Below are positions 49,139 through 58,196 of a stretch of 64,000 bases of DNA, piece after piece. The stretch's first letter is position 1; each line of letters starts with the position of its first letter. Under the pieces are notes generated by a model, which was not told where the DNA came from, did not search any database, and worked only from the letters and a program-made list of their open reading frames with translations. Source of the DNA: Cellulomonas xiejunii (GTDB lineage Bacteria; Actinomycetota; Actinomycetes; Actinomycetales; Cellulomonadaceae). The DNA is taken from positions 3,596,001 through 3,660,000 of the forward strand of contig NZ_CP101987.1 in assembly GCF_024508315.1 (NCBI RefSeq), in the 5' to 3' direction. A program made the translations under genes and the position numbers.

Positions 49139-49840
49139 TCACCCCGCCGTGCCGACCGCACCGTCGGGCTCGAAGCGGTAGCCCATCCCCGCCTCCGTCA
49201 GCAGGTGGCGGGGGTGCGCCGGCACGGGCTCGAGCTTCTTGCGCAGCTGCGCGACGTACAGCCGCAGGTAGCCGGTGTCCGTGACGTGCTGCGAACCCCA
49301 AATCTCGGTCAGCAGGGTCTGGCGCGTCACGAGCCGGCCGGGGTTGCGCACCAGCCGCTCGAGCACCTGCCACTCGGTCGGGGTCAGGCGCACGTGCGCA
49401 CCGTCGCGCAGCACGGTCCGGGCCGACAGGTCGACGGTCACGTCACCGAACCGCACGACGGGCGCGGCGGTGCTGTCCTCGTGCGTCGCCCGCCGGGTGA
49501 GCGCGCGGATGCGTGCCAGGACCTCCTCGATCGAGAACGGCTTGGTCACGTAGTCGTCGGCGCCGGCGTCGAGCGCCTCGACCTTGTCCGCCGCGCCCGT
49601 GCGTCCCGACACGACGAGGATCGGCGCCTCGGACCAGCCCCGCACGGCGTGGATGACGTCGACGCCGTCGAGGCCGGGCATGCCGAGGTCGAGCATGAGG
49701 ACGTCGGGCCGGTGGTCGATCGCCGCCGTGATGGCCTGCGGGCCCGACGTGGCGGTCACGACGTCGTACCCCTGCACCGCGAGCGTGATCCGCAGCGCCC
49801 GCAGGATCTGCGGGTCGTCGTCCGCGACGAGGATCCTCAT
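49139..49840 (-). CDS. kdpE: Response regulator KdpE
   Basis: This 233-aa OmpR/PhoB-type regulator has a receiver domain (Asp8, Asp9, phospho-acceptor Asp51 and Lys100 in VTKPFS) and a winged-helix DNA-binding domain (about 130-225, with LTPTEWQVLERLVRNPG). It should activate the kdp operon when phosphorylated by KdpD. ATG 49840 overlaps the kdpD stop as ATGA. It is the last gene of the operon. Confidence 0.95.
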   Translation of the reverse strand: MRILVADDDPQILRALRITLAVQGYDVVTATSGPQAITAAIDHRPDVLMLDLGMPGLDGVDVIHAVRGWSEAPILVVSGRTGAADKVEALDAGADDYVTKPFSIEEVLARIRALTRRATHEDSTAAPVVRFGDVTVDLSARTVLRDGAHVRLTPTEWQVLERLVRNPGRLVTRQTLLTEIWGSQHVTDTGYLRLYVAQLRKKLEPVPAHPRHLLTEAGMGYRFEPDGAVGTAG

Positions 49841-52383
49841 GCCGCCCCCTCCGTGCCGTCCGTGCCGTCCGTGCCGTCCGTCCCGTCCGTGCCGTCCGCC
49901 GCGACCGCGGGCAGCGCCACCACCATCGTCAGGCCGCCACCCGGCGTGTCCTCGGGGGTGAGCGTGCCGCCCATGCCGGTGACGAACCCCTTGGACAGCG
50001 CGAGCCCAAGCCCCAGGCCGGTCGAGTTGTCGGTGTCCCCGAGCCGCTGGAACGGCACGAACACGTCGTCGCGCCGCTCGCGCGGGATGCCGGGACCGTG
50101 GTCGACGACGCGGATCTGCACGGTGCCGGCGAACGCGCTGGTCGCGACGTGCACCCGCGTGCCGGGTGGCGCGTGGCGCGTCGCGTTGGCGAGCAGGTTC
50201 ACCACGACGCGTTGCAGCAGCACGGGGTCCCCGACGACGGGCGGCACGTCGAGGTCGAGGTCGAGCCCGACCTCGTCCGGGCCGAGGCCCAGCTCGTCGA
50301 GCGCCACCAGGACGACGTCGGCGGTGTCGACGTGCGCCCGCGCGAACGCGAGCACGCCCGCGTCGAGCCGGCTGACGTCGAGGAGGTCCGTCATGAGGGT
50401 CGCCAGGGCGCGCAGGCTCTCGTCGGCGGTGTCGAGCAGCTCGGCGTGGTCGGCGGCGCTGAGCCGTGCGCCGCCCGTGCGCAGACCGCCGACCGCCGCC
50501 GTCGCGGCGCTCAGCGGGCGGCGCAGGTCGTGGCTGAGGGCCGAGAGCAGCGCGCTGCGCACGCGGTCGGACTCGGTGAGGTGGTCGACCTCGCTGGCCG
50601 CCGACGCGAGGTCGCTGTGCTCGAGCGCCGCGCGCAGCTGCACCGCGATGACGTTGAGCAGCCGCCGCTCGGAGGCCGCCAGCGGCGGGCCGTACAGCTC
50701 GAGCGCCGCGCGCTCGTCGACGGTCACGGTCGTGGACGGGTCGCCCGACGGGACCTCGCCGTCCGACGCGAGCACCGTGCCGGCCGGGCCGGCGCCCACG
50801 ACGAGGCGCGCCGCCGTCATGCCGAACGCCTCGCGGGCACGGCCGACGAGTGCCGCGACGGCGTCCTGCCCGCGCAGCACGCTGCCGGCGACCGTGGCCA
50901 GCAGCTCGGACTCTGCGGCGGCGCGGTGCGCGGCCTGCGTGGTCCGGGCGGCGCGGTCCACCACGACGCTGACGAGCACGGCGATGACGACGTACAGGAC
51001 GAGCGTCATCAGCTGCACCGGGTCCGCCACGGTGACGGTCCGGTACGGCTCGACGAAGAAGAAGTCGATGGTCAGGCCCGACAGCACCGCGGCGTACACC
51101 GCGGGCCACGCACCGCCGACGAGCGCGACCAGCACGACGAGCAGCTGGTAGGCCAGCACGTCGGTGCTCGCGGTGCCCTCGCCGCGCGTCGCGACGAGCA
51201 GCCAGGTCAGCAGCGGCCCGCCGACGACCGCGAGCGCGAACCCGGCCACGCGGCGCCGTAGCGTCAGCGCACCGCCGATGCGCGGCAGCGTCGGCCGCGC
51301 GCCGGCGGCGGCGTGGTTGACGACGTGCACGTCGATCTTGCCCGCCTCGCGGGTCACGGTGGCGCCGATGCCCGGGCCGCTGAGCGCGGTGGCGAGCCAG
51401 CCGCGGCGGGACACGCCGATGACGAGCTGCGTCGCGTCCACCGCGGTGGCGAACTCGACGAGCGCGCGCGGCACGTCGTCGCCGACGACCTGGTGGTACG
51501 TGCCGCCCAGCTGCTCGACGAGCGCCCGCTGGTGCGCGAGCGCGCCGGGCGCCGCACCGCGCAGGCCGTCCTGGCGCGTCACGTGCACGGCCAGCAGCTG
51601 CCCGCCCGCCGAGCGCGCGGCGATGCGCGCACCGCGCCGGATCAGCGTCTCCCCCTCCGGGCCGCCCGTGAGCGTGACGACGACCCGCTCGCGCGCCTCC
51701 CACGGGCTGTCGATGCCGTGCTCGGTGCGGTACAGGCGCAGCGCGGCGTCGACCTCGTCGGCCAGCCACAGCAGCGCGAGCTCGCGCAGCGCCGTGAGGT
51801 TGCCGAGGCGGAAGTAGTTCGACAGGGCGGCGTCGACGCGCTCGGCCGGGTACACGTACCCGCCGGCGAGCCGGTCGCGCAGCGCCTGCGGCGCGAGGTC
51901 GACCACCTCGACCTGGTCGGCGGCCCGCAGCACGGCGTCGGGGACCGTCTCGCGCTGGACGACGCCGGTGATCTTCTCCACGACGTCGTTGAGGGACTCG
52001 ATGTGCTGGATGTTCACCGTCGAGAGCACGTCGATCCCGGCGTCGAGCAGCGCGTCGACGTCCTGCCAGCGCTTGGTGCGTGCCAGGCCGGGGGCGTTGG
52101 TGTGCGCGAGCTCGTCGACCAGTGCGACGTCCGGGCGGCGGGCCAGCACGGCGTCGACGTCGAGCTCGGTGAGCTCGACCTCCCGGTGCCGGACCGTGCG
52201 GCGCGGCACCACCTCCAGGCCCTCGACCATCGCGGCCGTGTGGGCGCGGCCGTGGGTCTCCACGACCGCGACCACGACGTCACGCCCCTCGTCACGCAGG
52301 CGGCGGCCCTCCTCGAGCATCGCGTAGGTCTTGCCCACGCCCGGTGCCGCACCGAGGAGGACGCGGAGCCGCCCACGCGCCAT
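49837..52383 (-). CDS. kdpD: Sensor histidine kinase KdpD
   Basis: This 848-aa K+-sensing kinase has a KdpD N-terminal domain with Walker A GAAPGVGKT (11-19) and DELAHTN, a USP-like domain (about 230-350), four membrane helices (about 375-475), a GAF-like segment (about 490-610), HisKA with the His in SALSHDLRRPL, and HATPase (about 720-830). The protein ends in a DGT repeat tail (five copies) encoded by a 9-bp microsatellite. ATG 52383 is two bases from the kdpC stop. Confidence 0.95.
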   Translation of the reverse strand: MARGRLRVLLGAAPGVGKTYAMLEEGRRLRDEGRDVVVAVVETHGRAHTAAMVEGLEVVPRRTVRHREVELTELDVDAVLARRPDVALVDELAHTNAPGLARTKRWQDVDALLDAGIDVLSTVNIQHIESLNDVVEKITGVVQRETVPDAVLRAADQVEVVDLAPQALRDRLAGGYVYPAERVDAALSNYFRLGNLTALRELALLWLADEVDAALRLYRTEHGIDSPWEARERVVVTLTGGPEGETLIRRGARIAARSAGGQLLAVHVTRQDGLRGAAPGALAHQRALVEQLGGTYHQVVGDDVPRALVEFATAVDATQLVIGVSRRGWLATALSGPGIGATVTREAGKIDVHVVNHAAAGARPTLPRIGGALTLRRRVAGFALAVVGGPLLTWLLVATRGEGTASTDVLAYQLLVVLVALVGGAWPAVYAAVLSGLTIDFFFVEPYRTVTVADPVQLMTLVLYVVIAVLVSVVVDRAARTTQAAHRAAAESELLATVAGSVLRGQDAVAALVGRAREAFGMTAARLVVGAGPAGTVLASDGEVPSGDPSTTVTVDERAALELYGPPLAASERRLLNVIAVQLRAALEHSDLASAASEVDHLTESDRVRSALLSALSHDLRRPLSAATAAVGGLRTGGARLSAADHAELLDTADESLRALATLMTDLLDVSRLDAGVLAFARAHVDTADVVLVALDELGLGPDEVGLDLDLDVPPVVGDPVLLQRVVVNLLANATRHAPPGTRVHVATSAFAGTVQIRVVDHGPGIPRERRDDVFVPFQRLGDTDNSTGLGLGLALSKGFVTGMGGTLTPEDTPGGGLTMVVALPAVAADGTDGTDGTDGTDGTEGAA
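49851..49899 (-). repeat. 9-bp microsatellite at the 3' end of kdpD
   Basis: About five units of GTGCCGTCC (plus strand) occur in tandem, one with a single substitution. They encode the repeated Asp-Gly-Thr just before the kdpD stop. Unit loss or gain stays in frame. Confidence 0.8.
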
Positions 52384-52385
52384 GC

Positions 52386-53000
52386 TCAGCCCTCCCGGTC
52401 GTCGAGGGCGAGGTTGAGCCGCAGCACGTTCACGGTCGGCTCGCCCACGAACCCCAGGCCGCGTCCCCCAGTGTGCCGCGCCACGAGGTCGGCGACGTCC
52501 CGCTCCGACATCCCGCGTGCGGCGGCGACGCGCGGCACCTGCAGCGCCGCGTACGCGGGGCTGACGTGCGGGTCCAGGCCGGACGCGGACGCGGTGACGG
52601 CGTCGGCGGGCACGTCGGCCGGATCGACCCCCTCCAGGGCCGCGACCTGCGCGCGCCGGTCCTCGATCGCGGCGACCAGGTCCGGGTTCTCCGGCCCCAG
52701 GTTGGAGCCGGACGACGCCCCCGCGTCGTACCCGTCGCCCGCGGCCGAGGGCCGGGACTGGAAGTACCGGGCCAGCGGCTCGCCGTCCGCGTCGGTGAAC
52801 GACTGCCCGATCAGCGCGGACCCGACGACGGTGCCGTCGGGGCCGGTGAGGAGCGAGCCGCGCGCCTGCGCGGGGGCGACCAGCTGCGCGACGCCCGTGA
52901 CGACGGCGGTGTAGCCGACGCCGAGCAGCAGGGTGAGGACGACCATGGCGCGGACGGCGACGCCCAGGGTGCGGGCGGCGGTGCGGGTGGCGAGGGGCAT
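52386..53000 (-). CDS. kdpC: K+-transporting ATPase subunit C
   Basis: This 204-aa subunit stabilises the KdpFABC complex. It has one N-terminal membrane helix (about 12-32), then the conserved GSALIGQSF, YFQSRPSAAGDGYDAGASSGSNLGP, DAVTASASGLDPHVSPAYA and GEPTVNVLRLNLAL. ATG 53000 has GAGGAGA upstream, 34 bases after kdpB. Confidence 0.95.
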   Translation of the reverse strand: MPLATRTAARTLGVAVRAMVVLTLLLGVGYTAVVTGVAQLVAPAQARGSLLTGPDGTVVGSALIGQSFTDADGEPLARYFQSRPSAAGDGYDAGASSGSNLGPENPDLVAAIEDRRAQVAALEGVDPADVPADAVTASASGLDPHVSPAYAALQVPRVAAARGMSERDVADLVARHTGGRGLGFVGEPTVNVLRLNLALDDREG

Positions 53001-53034: not shown

Positions 53035-55191
53035 TCAGTAGCCGGGCAGGAGGCGGACGACGAGGTCGATGAGCCAGATGCCGACGAACGGCACGACGAC
53101 GCCGCCGAGCCCGTAGACCAGGAGGTTGCGCCCGAGGACGGCGGAGGCGTCGAGAGGCCGGTACCGCACGCCGCGCAGCGCGAGCGGGATGAGCGCGACG
53201 ATGACGAGCGCGTTGAACACGACCGCGGACAGCACCGCGGACGACGGCGAGTGCAGGCCCATGACGTTCAGCACCGCGAGCCCCGGGAACACGCCCATGA
53301 ACATCGCGGGGATGATCGCGAAGTACTTGGCGACGTCGTTGGCGATCGAGAACGTCGTCAGCGCGCCGCGCGTGATGAGCAGCTGCTTGCCGATCCGCAC
53401 GACGTCGATGAGCTTGGTCGGGTCCGAGTCGAGGTCGACCATGTTGCCGGCCTCCTTCGCGGCCGACGTGCCGGTGTTCATCGCCATCCCGACGTCGGCC
53501 TGCGCGAGCGCCGGGGCGTCGTTGGTGCCGTCGCCCGTCATTGCGACGAGGTGGCCCCCGGCCTGCTCGCGACGGATCAGCGCGAGCTTGTCCTCCGGCG
53601 TCGCCTCGGCCAGGACGTCGTCGACGCCCGCCTCGGCCGCGATGGCGTGGGCGGTCACGGGGTTGTCGCCCGTGACCATGACCGTGCGGATGCCCATGGC
53701 GCGCAGCTCGGCGAACCGCTGGGCGAGCCCTTCCTTGACGACGTCCTTGAGGTGCACGACGCCGAGCACGCGGCCCGCGCGGCCGGGTCCCGCGACCGCG
53801 ACGACCAGCGGCGTGCCGCCGGACCGTGCGACGTGCTCGACGGCGGCGTCCAGCTCGGCCCGGACGTCGGGCGCCACGGGCGTCCCCTCCGTCTCGAGCC
53901 ACGCGACGACCGCCGAACCGGCCCCCTTGCGGATCCGCGTGCCGTCGGGCTCGTCGAGCCCGGACATGCGGGTCTGCGCGGTGAACGGCACGACCTCCCC
54001 GGGCACGACCGTGCCCACGTCGGCGCCGCTGCGGCGCGCCAGGTCGACGACCGACGTGCCCTCGGGCGTCGGGTCGGCCAGCGACGCGAGCGCCGCGGCC
54101 CGCACGAGCTCCGCCTGCGGGACGTCGCCCAGCGCGACGAACGACACCGCCTGCCGGTTGCCGTAGGTGATCGTGCCGGTCTTGTCGAGCAGCAGCGTCG
54201 TCACGTCGCCCGCGGCCTCGACGGCCCGCCCGGACATGGCGAGCACGTTGTGCTGCACCAGCCGGTCCATGCCGGCGATGCCGATGGCGGACAGCAGCGC
54301 GCCGATCGTCGTCGGGATCAGGCAGACCAGCAGCGCGACGAGGACGGCGACGCTCACGGGCTCCGCCGCGTACGACGCGATCGGGTTCAGCGTGAGCGCG
54401 ACGACGACGAACACGACCGACAGCGCCGCCAGCAGGATCGACAGCGCGATCTCGTTGGGGGTCTTCTGCCGGCTCGCCCCCTCCACCAGCGCGATCATCC
54501 GGTCGACGAACGTCTCCCCCGGCTTCGAGGTGATGCGCACGACGACCCGGTCGGACAGCACGCGCGTCCCGCCCGTGACGGCCGAGCGGTCACCCCCGGA
54601 CTCGCGGATGACCGGCGCGGACTCCCCGGTGATCGCCGACTCGTCGACCGACGCGATGCCGTGGACGATCTCTCCGTCCCCGGGCACGAGCTCCCCCGCG
54701 CTGATGACGACGACGTCACCGAGCCGCAGGTCCGCCGACGACACCTCGACCAGCGGAGCACGGGTCGCGCCCGGGTCGCCGGCCTCGTCGTAGGCCGCGA
54801 CCTTGTGGGCCGCCGTCGCCGTGCGGGTGCGTCGCAGGGAGTCCGCCTGCGCCTTGCCGCGCCCCTCGGCGACGGACTCCGCGAGGTTCGCGAACAGGGC
54901 CGTGACCCACAGGACCGCCGCGATGACGCCGGTGAACGACGCGGGCACGGTGGTGCCGCCCGACTCGGCGGGCCCGCCGAGGAAGGGCTCCGCGACGGCC
55001 AGCACGGTGGTGAGCGCCGCACCGACCCAGACCACGAACATCACGGGGTTGCGCCACATGTGCCGCGGGTCGAGCTTGCGGACCGCACCGGGCAGCGCGT
55101 CGCGGACCTGCGCCCACGTGAAGGCGCCGGCGGGGGTGGGCGCCGGGGCGGGCGCGGGAGGGGCGTCGGTGCGTTCGAGCGTGGTGGACAT
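53035..55191 (-). CDS. kdpB: K+-transporting P-type ATPase subunit B
   Basis: This 718-aa P-type ATPase is the energising subunit. It shows the actuator TGES (in ITGESAPVI), the phosphorylation motif DKTGTITYG, the N-domain KGAG motif and [11 protein letters not shown] in the hinge. The first ~30 residues are Pro/Ala-rich. ATG 55191 overlaps the kdpA stop by one base (TGATG). It uses ATP to drive K+ through KdpA. Confidence 0.96.
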
Positions 55192-56864
55192 CAGATCAGC
55201 CCTTCCGCCAGGGGACCCAGCGCGAGAACGGGGAAGTACGTGAGTGCGGTGAGGACGACGACCACGCCGGCGAGCAGCCCGACGAACTGCGGGCGGTGGG
55301 TGGGCAGGGTGCCGACGGTCGAGGGGACCGCGCCCTGCGCGGCCAGGGACCCGGCCAGCGCCAGGACCAGGACCATGGGCACGAAGCGGCCGAGCAGGAT
55401 CGCCACGCCGAGGGCCGTGTTGAGCCACGGCGTGTTCGCGGTGAGGCCGGCGAACGCCGAGCCGTTGTTGTTCGCGGCCGACGTGAACGCGTACAGCACC
55501 TCGGACAGGCCGTGCACGCCGGGGTTCCAGATGGACGTCCCCTCGACGCTGTCCCGCAGCGCCGGCACCCCGAAGCTCAGGGCCGTGCCCGCGAGCACGA
55601 GGGTCGGCGTCACGAGGATGTACAGGCTCGCGAGCTTGATCTCGCGCGGGCCGATCTTCTTGCCCAGGTACTCCGGAGTGCGGCCCACCAGCAGGCCGGC
55701 GACGAAGACCGCCACGACGGCCAGCACGAGCATCCCGTACAGGCCGGACCCGACACCGCCGGGCGCGACCTCGCCGAGCATCATGTTGAGCATCGGCAGC
55801 ATGCCGCCGAGCGCCGTGTACGAGTCGTGCATCGAGTTCACCGCGCCCGTCGAGGTGCCCATGCTCGTCGTCGCGAACAGCGCCGACCAGACGATCCCGA
55901 AGCGCGCCTCCTTGCCCTCGGTCGCGGCGCCCGCGAGCGCCGGGGCGGCACCGCCGGCGGCGGACTCCAGCGCGACGAGCGCGAGGAACGACGCCGAGAA
56001 CAGCCCCGCCATGACCCCGGTGATCGCGTACCCCTGCCGGTGGTCGCCGACCATGCGGCCGAAGGTGCGCGGCAGGCTGAACGGGATGACGAGCATGAGG
56101 ACGATCTCGAGCAGGTTGGTCCACTGCGTGGGGTTCTCGAAGGGGTGCGCCGAGTTGGCGTTGTAGAACCCGCCGCCGTTGGTGCCGAGCAGCTTGATCG
56201 CCTCCTGCGAGGCGACGGGCCCGCCGGGGACCGGCTGCGTCCCGCCGGCCAGCGTGGTCACGTCGGTGAAGCCGGCGAGGTTCTGCACGACCCCGCCGAT
56301 CACCAGCAGCACGGCCGCGAGCAGCGCGGCGGGCAGCAGGATGCGCAGGCAGCCGCGCAGCAGGTCGACCCAGAAGTTGCCGATCGTCGCCGAGCGGCGC
56401 GCCGCGAACCCGCGCACGAGTGCGACGGCGACGGCCATGCCGACGGCTGCGGACACGAAGTTCTGCACCACCAGACCGGCGGCCTGCACGGTGTGCCCGA
56501 GCGTGAGCTCCGGGGAGTACGACTGCCAGTTGGTGTTGCCGACGAAGGACGCGGCGGTGTTGAACGCCAGGTGCTCCGACGGCGCCCCGAGGCCCAGCGA
56601 CAGCGGCAGCCACTGCTGCGTGCGCTGCAGCGCGTAGACGAGGACCAGGCCGACGAACGAGACGGCCAGCACGCTGCGCAGGTAGACGGGCCACGTCTGC
56701 TGCGAGCGCGGGTCGACGCCCAGCACGCGGTAGACGGCACGCTCGACGCGCCAGTCCGTGCCGGTGGTGTAGACGTGCGCCATGTAGTCACCGAGCGGGC
56801 GGTACGCGGCCGCGAGGAGCAGCAGGACCGCGCCGAGGGTGAGGACGGCCAGCAGCCCGGTCAT
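55191..56864 (-). CDS. kdpA: K+-transporting ATPase subunit A (K+ channel-like)
   Basis: This 557-aa subunit carries the K+ selectivity filter. All four pore loops are visible: [40 protein letters not shown] and [12 protein letters not shown]. Ten membrane helices are expected. ATG 56864 overlaps the kdpF stop by one base (TGATG). Confidence 0.96.
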
Positions 56865-56953
56865 CAGAAGCGCTCCGGTCGGAGGAGCGCGACGAGCAGG
56901 TAGACGACCGCGGCGACGCCGAGCCCCGCGGCGAGCAGCTCGAGGACGATCAC
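56864..56953 (-). CDS. kdpF: KdpF small membrane subunit
   Basis: This 29-aa peptide has one membrane helix ([20 protein letters not shown]) and ends ALLRPERF, the KdpF signature. KdpF stabilises the KdpABC complex. GTG 56953 overlaps the stop of the preceding 27-codon ORF as GTGA, and its own stop overlaps kdpA. Confidence 0.9.
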
Positions 56954-57033
56954 AGCCGCTCGACCGCCTTGCCGAGGCAGGCGGTCAGCCCGAGCACGGC
57001 GGCCGCGACGAGCAGGTAGACGATGTCGAGCAC
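56950..57033 (-). CDS. 27-aa single-helix membrane peptide leading the kdp operon
   Basis: A GTG at 57033, with GGAG six bases upstream, opens a 27-codon frame: [16 protein letters not shown], then [11 protein letters not shown]. It has one hydrophobic helix and a basic C-terminal end. Its TGA overlaps the kdpF start (GTGA), as in the following junctions, so it looks translated and coupled. From memory, comparable small ORFs with a terminal ERL-type end precede kdpF in other bacteria, but no function is known to me. Confidence 0.65.
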
Positions 57034-57170
57034 GCGGGTCTCCACGGTCCGGAGGACGGCCCCCGTCGTGGCGGGCGCCGGGCACCCGTCAGGGGCGCCG
57101 GCGACGATGCAACACCCGCGTCGGGCGCCGGGCGCCCGTCCTCACGGAACCCATACGGCCTGCCGCCGGG

Positions 57171-57190
57171 CTCTGACGACTCCCTGACGC
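57171..57190 (-). promoter_or_regulatory. Possible KdpE direct repeats upstream of the kdp operon
   Basis: CTCTGACGAC and TCCCTGACGC are adjacent, putting TGACG at 57174 and 57185 (period 11). OmpR-type regulators such as KdpE usually bind tandem direct repeats. They lie about 140 bases before the first kdp ORF; a CGTATGG stretch at ~57157 could be the -10. Confidence 0.3.
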
Positions 57191-57218
57191 CGGGACGTGG
57201 CTTCTGGCCCCCAGGGCG

Positions 57219-58196
57219 TCAGACGGGCTCGGGCGCCGCCTTCGCCAGCCGCCGCGCCAGCACCGCCGTCACGACGATCTGCAGCTGGTGGAACGCGATC
57301 ACCGGCAGCGCGACGCTCGCCGCCACCGCGGGCGCGAACAGCACGGCCGCCATCGGCAGCCCGGTCGCTGCCGACTTCTTCGACCCGCACATGAGCAGCG
57401 CGATGCGGTCGCCACGGTCCAGGCCGAGCGCCGCGCCACCGAACCAGGTGGCCGCGAGCATCACGGCCAGCACGACCGCGCACACCACCAGCAGCACCAG
57501 CAGCGCCGTCACCGTCAGGTCGTCCCACGCGCCGGCGGTCTGCGCCTCGCTGACGGACGTGAACACCACCAGCAGGATCGTCGCGCGGTCCGTCACCTTC
57601 AGCAGGCCCCCGTGCCGGCGCAGCCACGCCCCGATCCACGGCTGCACCAGCTGCCCCACGACGAACGGCAGCAGCAGCTGCAGCAGGATCCCGCTCACCG
57701 CACCGCCGTCGAGCCCCGCACCGGTTGCGCCGAGCAGCACCGCCACCAGCAGCGGGGTGAGCAGGACGCCCAGGACGTTGGAGATCGTCGCGCCGGTGAT
57801 GGCCCCCGCGATGTTGCCGCGGGCGATCGACGTCATCACCACGGACGACTGGACGGTCGACGGCAGCACCGACAGGTAGAGGAGCCCGCGGCGCAGGTCC
57901 GGGTCGAGCACCGCGTCCGGCAGCAGCTGCACCGCGAGGCCGAGCAGCGGGAACAGCACGTACGTCGCCGCCAGCATCGACCCCTGCAGGCGGAACCGCT
58001 TGAGGCCGTCGAGCACCTCACCGGTCGGCATCCGCGCGCCGTACAGGAAGAACAGCAGGACGATCGCGCCCGTCCGCACGGTGTCCAGACCCGCGCCGAC
58101 CCCGTCGGGGACGGGCACGAGCAGCGCCAGGACGAGGACACCGAGGATCATCGCTGTGAGCGGGTCGAGCCACCGCAGCCAGGTGGGGGTCCTCAT
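57219..58196 (-). CDS. Bile acid:sodium symporter family transporter (YfeH/SBF-like)
   Basis: This 325-aa membrane protein has about ten helices and belongs to the SBF-like (YfeH/P7) branch of the BASS superfamily: LYGARMPTGEVLDGLKRFRLQGSM early, SVLPSTVQSSVVMTSIARGN in helix 4, and CGSKKSAATGLPMAAVLF near the end. Branch members include human SLC10A7, linked to calcium handling; bacterial substrates are undefined. ATG 58196 is the only good start; no strong Shine-Dalgarno sequence is seen. It is divergent from the exonuclease gene. Confidence 0.85.
   Translation of the reverse strand: MRTPTWLRWLDPLTAMILGVLVLALLVPVPDGVGAGLDTVRTGAIVLLFFLYGARMPTGEVLDGLKRFRLQGSMLAATYVLFPLLGLAVQLLPDAVLDPDLRRGLLYLSVLPSTVQSSVVMTSIARGNIAGAITGATISNVLGVLLTPLLVAVLLGATGAGLDGGAVSGILLQLLLPFVVGQLVQPWIGAWLRRHGGLLKVTDRATILLVVFTSVSEAQTAGAWDDLTVTALLVLLVVCAVVLAVMLAATWFGGAALGLDRGDRIALLMCGSKKSAATGLPMAAVLFAPAVAASVALPVIAFHQLQIVVTAVLARRLAKAAPEPV

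What the first reader, a model, noticed from the sequence alone, without database searches (positions are those of the whole stretch)
56950..57033. Unannotated 27-codon membrane ORF heading the kdp operon
It has a ribosome-binding site, a single hydrophobic helix and a GTGA overlap with kdpF. The junctions small ORF/kdpF (4 bases), kdpF/kdpA (1 base) and kdpA/kdpB (1 base) form one translational chain, which is hard to explain unless the ORF is translated. It may be a second small subunit or a translation-entry element for the operon.
Basis: partly seen in the sequence, partly recalled or inferred. Interest (0 to 1): 0.55.

Follow-up and report, generated by a model that had tools for sequence, protein, structure and literature searches.

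The report
Conserved unannotated peptide before kdpF
The first gene of this bacterium's potassium-pump operon is a 27-residue membrane peptide that annotation misses; it recurs at the same spot in the kdp operons of most actinobacteria examined and of some proteobacteria and Deinococcus, but not in the few E. coli-type operons examined, so the pump may often have a fifth part that the textbook E. coli version lacks.

Summary
In detail: a 27-codon ORF (56950-57033, minus; GTG start, GGAG 6 bases before it) overlaps kdpF by GTGA; kdpF/kdpA and kdpA/kdpB share one base. It is far more than chance. A 27-position profile finds it before kdpA in 171 of 200 kdp loci: Actinomycetota, Alpha- and Betaproteobacteria, Deinococcus; reverse-strand and shuffled controls give nothing below E=1e-3. 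In the genus (Cellulomonas) 55 of 81 genomes have it beside kdpA; none of 22 KdpA-negative genomes does. Helix changes stay hydrophobic (98.6%, 58.7% expected). It lies downstream of a conserved candidate KdpE box. No Pfam, NCBIfam or PDB relative, no demonstrable homology to KdpF. Three enterobacterial operons lack it. Best reading: a translated single-helix accessory component of the Kdp pump, distinct from KdpF. A pure translation-entry role is less likely, since residues are constrained along the helix and kdpF has its own Shine-Dalgarno, but coupling to kdpF is widely kept. Partner and function are inferred. Precedent: two small ORFs open the C. acetobutylicum kdp operon.

The parts
56950..57033 (-). 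small ORF (27 codons): conserved single-helix membrane peptide, first gene of the kdp operon
   Evidence: family found in 171 of 200 kdp loci
57040..57043 (-). Shine-Dalgarno GGAG of the small ORF, spacer 6
56864..56953 (-). kdpF (29 codons), GTGA overlap with the small ORF
   Evidence: PF09604 E 1.9e-6
56963..56970 (-). AAGGCGGT, likely Shine-Dalgarno of kdpF inside the small ORF
   Evidence: duplex energy -7.4 in the window
55191..56864 (-). kdpA
   Evidence: PF03814 E 2.8e-225
53035..55191 (-). kdpB, one-base overlap with kdpA
   Evidence: named by sequence and position, not by a family search
52386..53000 (-). kdpC
   Evidence: named by position and sequence, not by a family search
49837..52383 (-). 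kdpD
   Evidence: PF02702 match at this place of the genome
57140..57157 (-). candidate KdpE box CGTATGGGTTCCGTGAGG (11-base direct repeat), 106 bases before the small ORF
   Evidence: strict pattern in 29 of 55 genus loci against 0 of 120 control windows; binding not shown
57171..57189 (-). second possible box CGTCAGGGAGTCGTCAGAG
   Evidence: sequence and alignment of relatives; not tested statistically

Best explanation
The ORF is a real gene for a single-span membrane peptide (N-terminus out, C-terminus in by the positive-inside rule) that belongs to the Kdp K+ pump as a second small accessory component beside KdpF. Under K+ limitation KdpE starts transcription upstream of it; it is translated first from its own GGAG/GTG, and its last codons carry the Shine-Dalgarno and start of kdpF, so both small proteins are made together just before KdpA and KdpB insert. 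Most likely it packs against the membrane part of KdpA/KdpB (or KdpC) and stabilises or tunes the complex, as KdpF does in E. coli. Shown here: conservation, coding constraint, linkage to kdpA, position downstream of a conserved candidate KdpE box. Inferred: translation in vivo, topology, KdpE control, the physical partner, the stabilising role.
For: Profile hits in 171 of 200 kdp loci, controls empty below 1e-3. A profile trained only on 9 non-actinobacterial peptides recovers 70 of 162 held-out loci at E<0.01 and the window's own at 0.0096; one trained on the genus recovers 104 of 115 outside it. Genus: KdpA in 59 of 81 genomes, peptide in 55 of 81, all KdpA-positive, best hit within about 225 bases before kdpA in all 55 (Fisher 4e-16, not corrected for relatedness). 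Of the 4 KdpA-positive misses two (G026, G045) do have the peptide and two are cut by contig ends. Actinomycetota sample: 25 of 296 genomes at E<=1e-3, all among the 51 with KdpA and all beside it. Five genomes with KdpD but no KdpA (G103, G117, G197, G238, G325) have no peptide. pN/pS 0.54 (0.41-0.70) in frame against 1.07 and 1.65 in the other frames; 0.56 (0.39-0.76) for codons 2-20, which leave out the kdpF Shine-Dalgarno, and 98.6% of helix changes stay hydrophobic against 58.7% expected. GC by codon position 0.80/0.41/0.95 in the genus. No positive residue in positions 1-5 and 1.9 on average in 21-27 of 128 distinct peptides. In M. smegmatis the mapped kdp start site lies 120 bases before kdpF (PMC5401905, section 21 read); in the 11 mycobacterial or tree-neighbouring loci the peptide starts 74-82 bases before kdpF, so it would fit in that leader.
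Against: No ribosome profiling, proteomic or pull-down evidence was found or could be run. The solved E. coli complex works with KdpF as its only small subunit (PDB matches to KdpF only). The profile misses 29 of 200 loci, among them E. coli, Proteus, Klebsiella, Halobacterium, Lactiplantibacillus, Sphingobium and Acinetobacter records and three in the window's own order or class (L094-L096). In the window's own clade (6 distinct sequences) pN/pS is 1.34 (0.72-2.80), so purifying selection is not seen there, and the near-invariant Phe14 is Leu in the window, though 102 of 102 pairwise helix changes stay hydrophobic (pairs not independent). The Streptomyces-trained profile misses the window (E 4.0), and the non-actinobacterial one also hits a kdpF ORF (L188, 0.0025). 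The kdpF Shine-Dalgarno may explain part of the C-terminal conservation. Two genus genomes and one phylum genome have an extra weak hit (4.9e-4, 0.0078, 0.0016) in long frames away from kdpA.
Confidence: 0.6

Rival explanations
1. Translation-entry (leader) element: the act of translating the ORF delivers ribosomes to kdpF and opens structure; the peptide itself is dispensable.
For: 4-base overlap with kdpF in 156 of 169 placed loci, and 8 of the other 13 have gaps of only 1-13 bases, still short enough for reinitiation. In Streptomyces boncukensis (gap 112) and Nonomuraea candida (gap 88) an extra ORF overlaps the peptide's stop and the kdpF start by 4 bases each, so the chain is kept. Reinitiation at actinobacterial leader ORFs is an argued general mechanism (PMC4833913, passages seen; no mention of kdp there).
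Against: kdpF has its own strong Shine-Dalgarno. Constraint along the helix, far from the junction: Asp3, Phe14, hydrophobic retention. In a Salmonella plasmid record a peptide-like ORF stands after kdpF, but it is only weakly supported (0.0058).
Confidence: 0.18
2. Regulatory membrane peptide acting on the sensor KdpD (or another membrane protein) rather than on the pump.
For: Mycobacterial KdpF is reported to interact with KdpD (PMC3618439, section heading and passage seen), so kdp small peptides can touch the sensor. 24 of the 25 peptide-bearing genomes of the phylum sample have a strong KdpD match.
Against: Five KdpD-positive, KdpA-negative genomes have no peptide (three of them are 84-90% complete). 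It is present in Deinococcus radiodurans, whose two-component genes are called unique in organisation (abstract of PMC5716572); what that means for KdpD was not examined.
Confidence: 0.14
3. A diverged duplicate of KdpF that doubles or replaces it.
For: Same size, same single-helix plan, adjacent, same inferred topology. Weak cross-hits: the KdpF profile scores one peptide (L203) at 0.0065 and the non-actinobacterial peptide profile one kdpF ORF at 0.0025.
Against: Profile-profile comparison finds no relation (probability 1.6%); Pfam and NCBIfam KdpF models do not hit the window peptide; the conserved residues differ (Asp3, Phe14, Arg/Lys26 against the Pro-Glu near the end of KdpF); 169 of the 171 loci with the peptide also have KdpF.
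Confidence: 0.06
4. Chance ORF in GC-rich DNA.
For: Short ORF; the window's own clade shows no purifying pN/pS.
Against: Cross-phylum profile recovery, empty controls, linkage to kdpA, hydrophobicity retention.
Confidence: 0.02

Closest known systems
KdpF (PF09604 / TIGR02115), small subunit of KdpFABC
   Same: 27-30 residues, one membrane helix, in the same operon, likely the same kind of role
   Different: No demonstrable sequence relation, different conserved residues, a separate gene: 169 of 171 loci with the peptide also have KdpF; not seen in the three enterobacterial records examined (L205, L210, L211)
The two small ORFs before kdpA in Clostridium acetobutylicum (kdpZ and kdpY in the order kdpZYABCXDE)
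   Same: Two small ORFs before kdpA in place of one; I recall that they were described in 1997 as putative hydrophobic peptides
   Different: Sequences not examined; the original paper is not held, only the gene order was seen, in a passage of PMC5401905. Whether kdpZ is this family is untested
RefSeq protein named 'potassium ABC transporter ATPase' (WP_191287747.1, Mycetohabitans rhizoxinica)
   Same: It is a member: profile E 1e-8, 4-base overlap with kdpF
   Different: The name does not fit a 34-residue single-helix peptide; Pfam and NCBIfam have no model for it
Small single-helix accessory proteins such as CydX and AcrZ
   Same: Tiny membrane proteins that belong to or modulate larger membrane complexes (starts of abstracts seen)
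   Different: Different complexes; no sequence relation tested

Membership tests
KdpF (PF09604/TIGR02115) | match to the KdpF profile | tested here: not met
   No PF09604 or TIGR02115 hit for the small ORF, while the neighbouring kdpF passes the PF09604 cut-off; hhalign probability 1.6%
KdpF (PF09604/TIGR02115) | gene directly before kdpA | tested here: not met
   kdpF itself holds that place; the small ORF lies before kdpF in all 169 loci with both profile hits
KdpF (PF09604/TIGR02115) | part of the purified Kdp complex | not testable with these tools
   needs copurification; the PDB sequence search finds KdpF but nothing like the peptide
Kdp-linked small membrane peptide (family described here) | profile match, about 27 residues, one helix, Asp3, Phe14, Arg/Lys26 | tested here: met
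   window E 1e-8 (the window was in the seed), 0.0096 with a profile that had not seen it or its phylum; Asp3 and Arg26 present, Phe14 is Leu in the window
Kdp-linked small membrane peptide (family described here) | occurs beside kdpA | tested here: met
   best hit beside kdpA in 55 of 55 genus genomes (E<=0.01) and 25 of 25 phylum genomes (E<=1e-3). Exceptions among weak hits: extra hits in G072 (4.9e-4), G020 (0.0078), G268 (0.0016), and 3 KdpA-negative genomes at 0.006-0.009, about what 296 searches at 0.01 would give by chance
Leader peptide acting by coupling | stop-start overlap with the next gene | tested here: met
   GTGA here, gap -4 in 156 of 169
Leader peptide acting by coupling | downstream gene depends on it (weak own ribosome site) | tested here: inconclusive
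   kdpF has a strong Shine-Dalgarno, which speaks against dependence; dependence itself needs experiment
C. acetobutylicum kdpZ/kdpY small ORFs | sequence similarity | not tested
   sequence not reached; paper not held

The most novel reading that the evidence does not exclude
The ancestral bacterial Kdp pump had five kinds of component, with two single-helix small subunits; the E. coli line lost one of them, so the solved E. coli Kdp structures show a reduced form, and the missing subunit tunes assembly or activity in most other bacteria.
Probability: 0.42. Interest if true: 0.8.

Novelty: new variant of a known kind. Interest (0 to 1): 0.6.

Why it matters
Kdp is a model P-type/channel hybrid pump whose solved structures matched here are of the E. 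coli type. If a fifth component is usual elsewhere, Kdp preparations from other bacteria cloned as kdpFABC would be incomplete, and the M. smegmatis kdp leader described as untranslated would hold a gene. It also gives a missing family model for annotation: in 10 annotated plasmid records with the ORF it is absent from 8, over-extended in one and misnamed in one.

Tried and rejected
Structured-RNA leader: no Rfam match at E<=1 for 56700-57400. KdpF duplicate: not demonstrable. Second copy elsewhere in the genome: one place only, in a single-peptide search. KdpD presence as a discriminator among KdpA-positive genomes: of no use, KdpD is nearly always there. A second KdpA search of plasmids, meant to reach clostridia, listed none in its 60 rows. 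A search meant for another phylum returned Actinomycetota again; its 8 loci (L195-L202) and L191-L194 were dropped as duplicates or near-duplicates before the counts. L060 was dropped because KdpA's N-terminus is missing. L214-L219 came later and are not in the 200: L214 has the peptide, L219 something like it, L215-L218 do not. The 200 loci are not an even sample: 57 are from the same genus, 80 are the best matches of one scan, and two pairs are the same genome (L008/L114, L022/L116). By origin the profile hits 56 of 57 genus, 25 of 42 phylum-sample, 79 of 80 genome contigs and 11 of 21 plasmid loci. Peptide-like ORFs in L034, L035, L092, L093, L099, L107, L109 and L206 were not counted as hits. 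No structure prediction was run.

Literature: nine searches. Most lists were capped (for example 20 of 195), so I can only say that no listed title or abstract start, and none of the passages I opened (PMC8552747, PMC5401905, PMC4833913, PMC8079986, PMC7798474, PMC11364881, PMC3618439, PMC5716572, PMC6488665, PMC10117811, PMC11133741), describes the peptide; of these I read one whole section (PMC5401905 section 21), otherwise found passages only. The library lacks most subscription journals.

Re-reading, the gaps are short (1-13) or bridged by an extra ORF, so that argument is withdrawn; odds moved from 0.62 to 0.60 (best), 0.15 to 0.18 (leader), 0.15 to 0.14 (KdpD) and 0.45 to 0.42 (novel case).

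Full report
What is there. On the minus strand of the window the kdp operon runs small ORF (56950-57033), kdpF (56864-56953), kdpA (55191-56864), kdpB (53035-55191), kdpC (52386-53000), kdpD (49837-52383), then kdpE. The small ORF has 27 codons, a GTG start, GGAG 6 bases before it, and ends in GTGA, which is also the start of kdpF. kdpF/kdpA and kdpA/kdpB share one base each. The genome belongs to Cellulomonas: two of the same-genus loci are identical over their length to named C. denverensis and C. hominis contigs.

Is it a gene? I gathered 201 kdp loci (genus, phylum sample, one genome-contig scan, plasmid records), placed KdpA in 200 and searched the ORFs upstream with an iterated 27-position profile. 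It hits 171 of 200 at E<1e-3, one ORF per locus; the best hit on the reverse strand is 1.6. Dinucleotide shuffles (10 per region of 200 bases or more, 9260 ORFs) give none below 1e-3, best 0.0058. To avoid circularity I trained on one group and tested on the rest: genus only, 104 of 115 recovered at E<0.01; Streptomyces only, 121 of 148 (it misses the window, E 4.0); nine non-actinobacterial peptides only, 70 of 162, window 0.0096. Side hits at E<0.01 in these runs were L099 (twice), L109 and the kdpF ORF of L188. Length is exactly 27 in 140 of 171 and the 4-base overlap recurs in 156 of 169.

Selection. Over the genus pN/pS is 0.54 (0.41-0.70) in frame and 1.07 and 1.65 in the other two; kdpF is more constrained (0.28-0.43 in the sets tried). 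Because a kdpF Shine-Dalgarno lies in codons 22-25, I repeated it for codons 2-20: 0.56 (0.39-0.76) in the genus and 0.64 (0.45-0.86) over all. Helix changes stay hydrophobic in 98.6% of 1369 pairwise cases, 58.7% expected from the code (pairs not independent). Against this, the window's own clade gives 1.34 (0.72-2.80) from 6 distinct sequences, and Streptomyces 0.63 (0.36-1.09): around the window the exact residues are free while hydrophobicity is kept (102 of 102 pairwise changes).

Linkage. In 81 genomes of the genus, 59 have KdpA and 55 have the peptide at E<=0.01, all inside the 59 and all with the best hit just before kdpA. The four misses are two contig-end cases (G002, G004) and two that do have it (L065 = G026, L214 = G045). 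In 296 Actinomycetota genomes, 51 have KdpA; the peptide reaches E<=1e-3 in 25, all KdpA-positive and beside kdpA, and three more at 0.006-0.009 are KdpA-negative, about chance. Weak extra hits away from kdpA exist in G072 (4.9e-4), G020 (0.0078) and G268 (0.0016), in long open frames. Five genomes with KdpD and no KdpA lack it. It follows the pump, not the sensor.

Reach. Profile members occur in Azospirillum, Rhizobium, Sinorhizobium, Roseomonas, Komagataeibacter, Paracoccus, Mycetohabitans, Caballeronia and Deinococcus plasmid records. Probable but not profile-supported ORFs with the same plan stand before kdpF in Phocaeicola and Listeria records and between kdpF and kdpA in a Salmonella plasmid record (the last reaches 0.0058 with the genus-trained profile). 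Profile misses include E. coli, Proteus, Klebsiella, Halobacterium, Lactiplantibacillus, Sphingobium and Acinetobacter records and 17 of 42 phylum-sample loci. On a quick KdpA tree of 129 rows the E. coli and Proteus rows are sister to the peptide-bearing Burkholderiaceae (support 96), while Deinococcus sits on the far side of the midpoint root, so loss in the E. coli line is the simpler reading. Absence is scattered: the 11 rows labelled 'none' need 5 changes (at least 3 forced), no fewer than shuffled labels (several long branches, quick method).

Coupling. Overlap is nearly universal; of the 13 exceptions among 169, two overlap by more, one by one base, eight have gaps of 1-13 bases, and two have gaps of 112 and 88 bases in which an extra ORF overlaps the peptide's stop and the kdpF start by 4 bases each. 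So the loci do not show a clearly uncoupled member, and a coupling role is compatible with them. What speaks for the peptide itself is the constraint along the helix and the strong Shine-Dalgarno of kdpF (156 overlapping starts, median -8.0; 171 peptide starts, -6.6; 342 control stretches, -2.4).

Position in the transcript. An 11-base direct repeat of the form CGTnnnG-n4-CGTnnnG lies upstream of the peptide in 38 of 55 genus loci and 52 of 115 others, against 0 of 120 and 3 of 440 control windows inside kdpA; in the window at 57140-57157, 106 bases before the start. I drew the pattern from the window's relatives and the M. smegmatis site, so the closest relatives are not independent. The mapped KdpE site of M. 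smegmatis (CCGTAAAGAAACCATCAAGGCC, PMC5401905, passages seen) has the same plan; matches with 3-4 mismatches lie upstream of the peptide in four of 16 loci tried (L043, L048, L144, L145), 6-10 in the rest, against 7 or more in 18 control windows. That the box binds KdpE here is inference. In M. smegmatis the mapped start site under K+ limitation is 120 bases before kdpF (section 21 read); in the 11 mycobacterial or tree-neighbouring loci the peptide starts 74-82 bases before kdpF, so the 'long 5'-UTR' would carry it. The M. smegmatis sequence itself was not examined. A Caulobacter paper likewise infers a leader of about 100 bases before kdpF (PMC8552747, passage seen), also not examined.

Identity. 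No Pfam or NCBIfam family, no PDB relative, no demonstrable relation to KdpF, one copy in the genome. Of the 10 plasmid records with a profile member and annotation in that stretch, 2 annotate it: as an over-extended 65-residue hypothetical (L101) and as 'potassium ABC transporter ATPase' (L110) (the PLSDB gene table is incomplete). A Streptomyces review lists four kdp pump genes (PMC10117811, passages seen).

How it most likely works. Asp3, Phe14 and a basic residue at 26 (90%, 93% and 95% of 128 distinct 27-residue peptides) describe a single helix with its C-terminus inside. With its strict tie to kdpA, co-translation with kdpF and constraint along the helix, the best-supported role is a second small accessory component of the pump. 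The leader-ORF, KdpD-regulator and KdpF-duplicate rivals are set out with their tests. Precedent: kdpZYABCXDE of C. acetobutylicum (gene order seen in a passage of PMC5401905; that Z and Y are hydrophobic peptides is recalled). The finding is therefore a widespread family without a model in the libraries searched, in a known system, with its function still to be shown.

Noticed in passing
L105 1281-1438 (Deinococcus radiodurans pMP1): The D. radiodurans kdp operon, annotated in PLSDB without any small subunit, holds both the new peptide and an unannotated kdpF between kdpB and kdpA.
   Followed up: partly
L109 1096-1423 (Salmonella enterica plasmid pSA20083039.1): Plasmid-borne kdp with the order kdpF, peptide-like ORF, kdpA, kdpC, kdpB; neither small ORF is annotated.
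   Followed up: partly
L138 and L139, between the peptide and kdpF: In Streptomyces boncukensis and Nonomuraea candida a low-complexity ORF of about 30-40 codons sits between the peptide and kdpF, overlapping both by 4 bases, so the translational chain is kept across an insertion.
   Followed up: partly
window 57072-57140: Two near-identical GC-rich repeats (CGGGCGCCGGGC[AG]CCCGTC, 57072-57090 and 57122-57140) lie between the small ORF and the candidate KdpE box.
   Followed up: no
L030, L037, L042, L045, L118, L137: In some species the peptide carries a polar C-terminal tail of about 19-37 residues while the helix and the 4-base overlap with kdpF are kept.
   Followed up: no
L014, L020, L025, L028, L030 against L001: The genus holds two distant kinds of KdpA (about 60-65% identical), each with its own form of the peptide, suggesting exchange of whole operons.
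   Followed up: no
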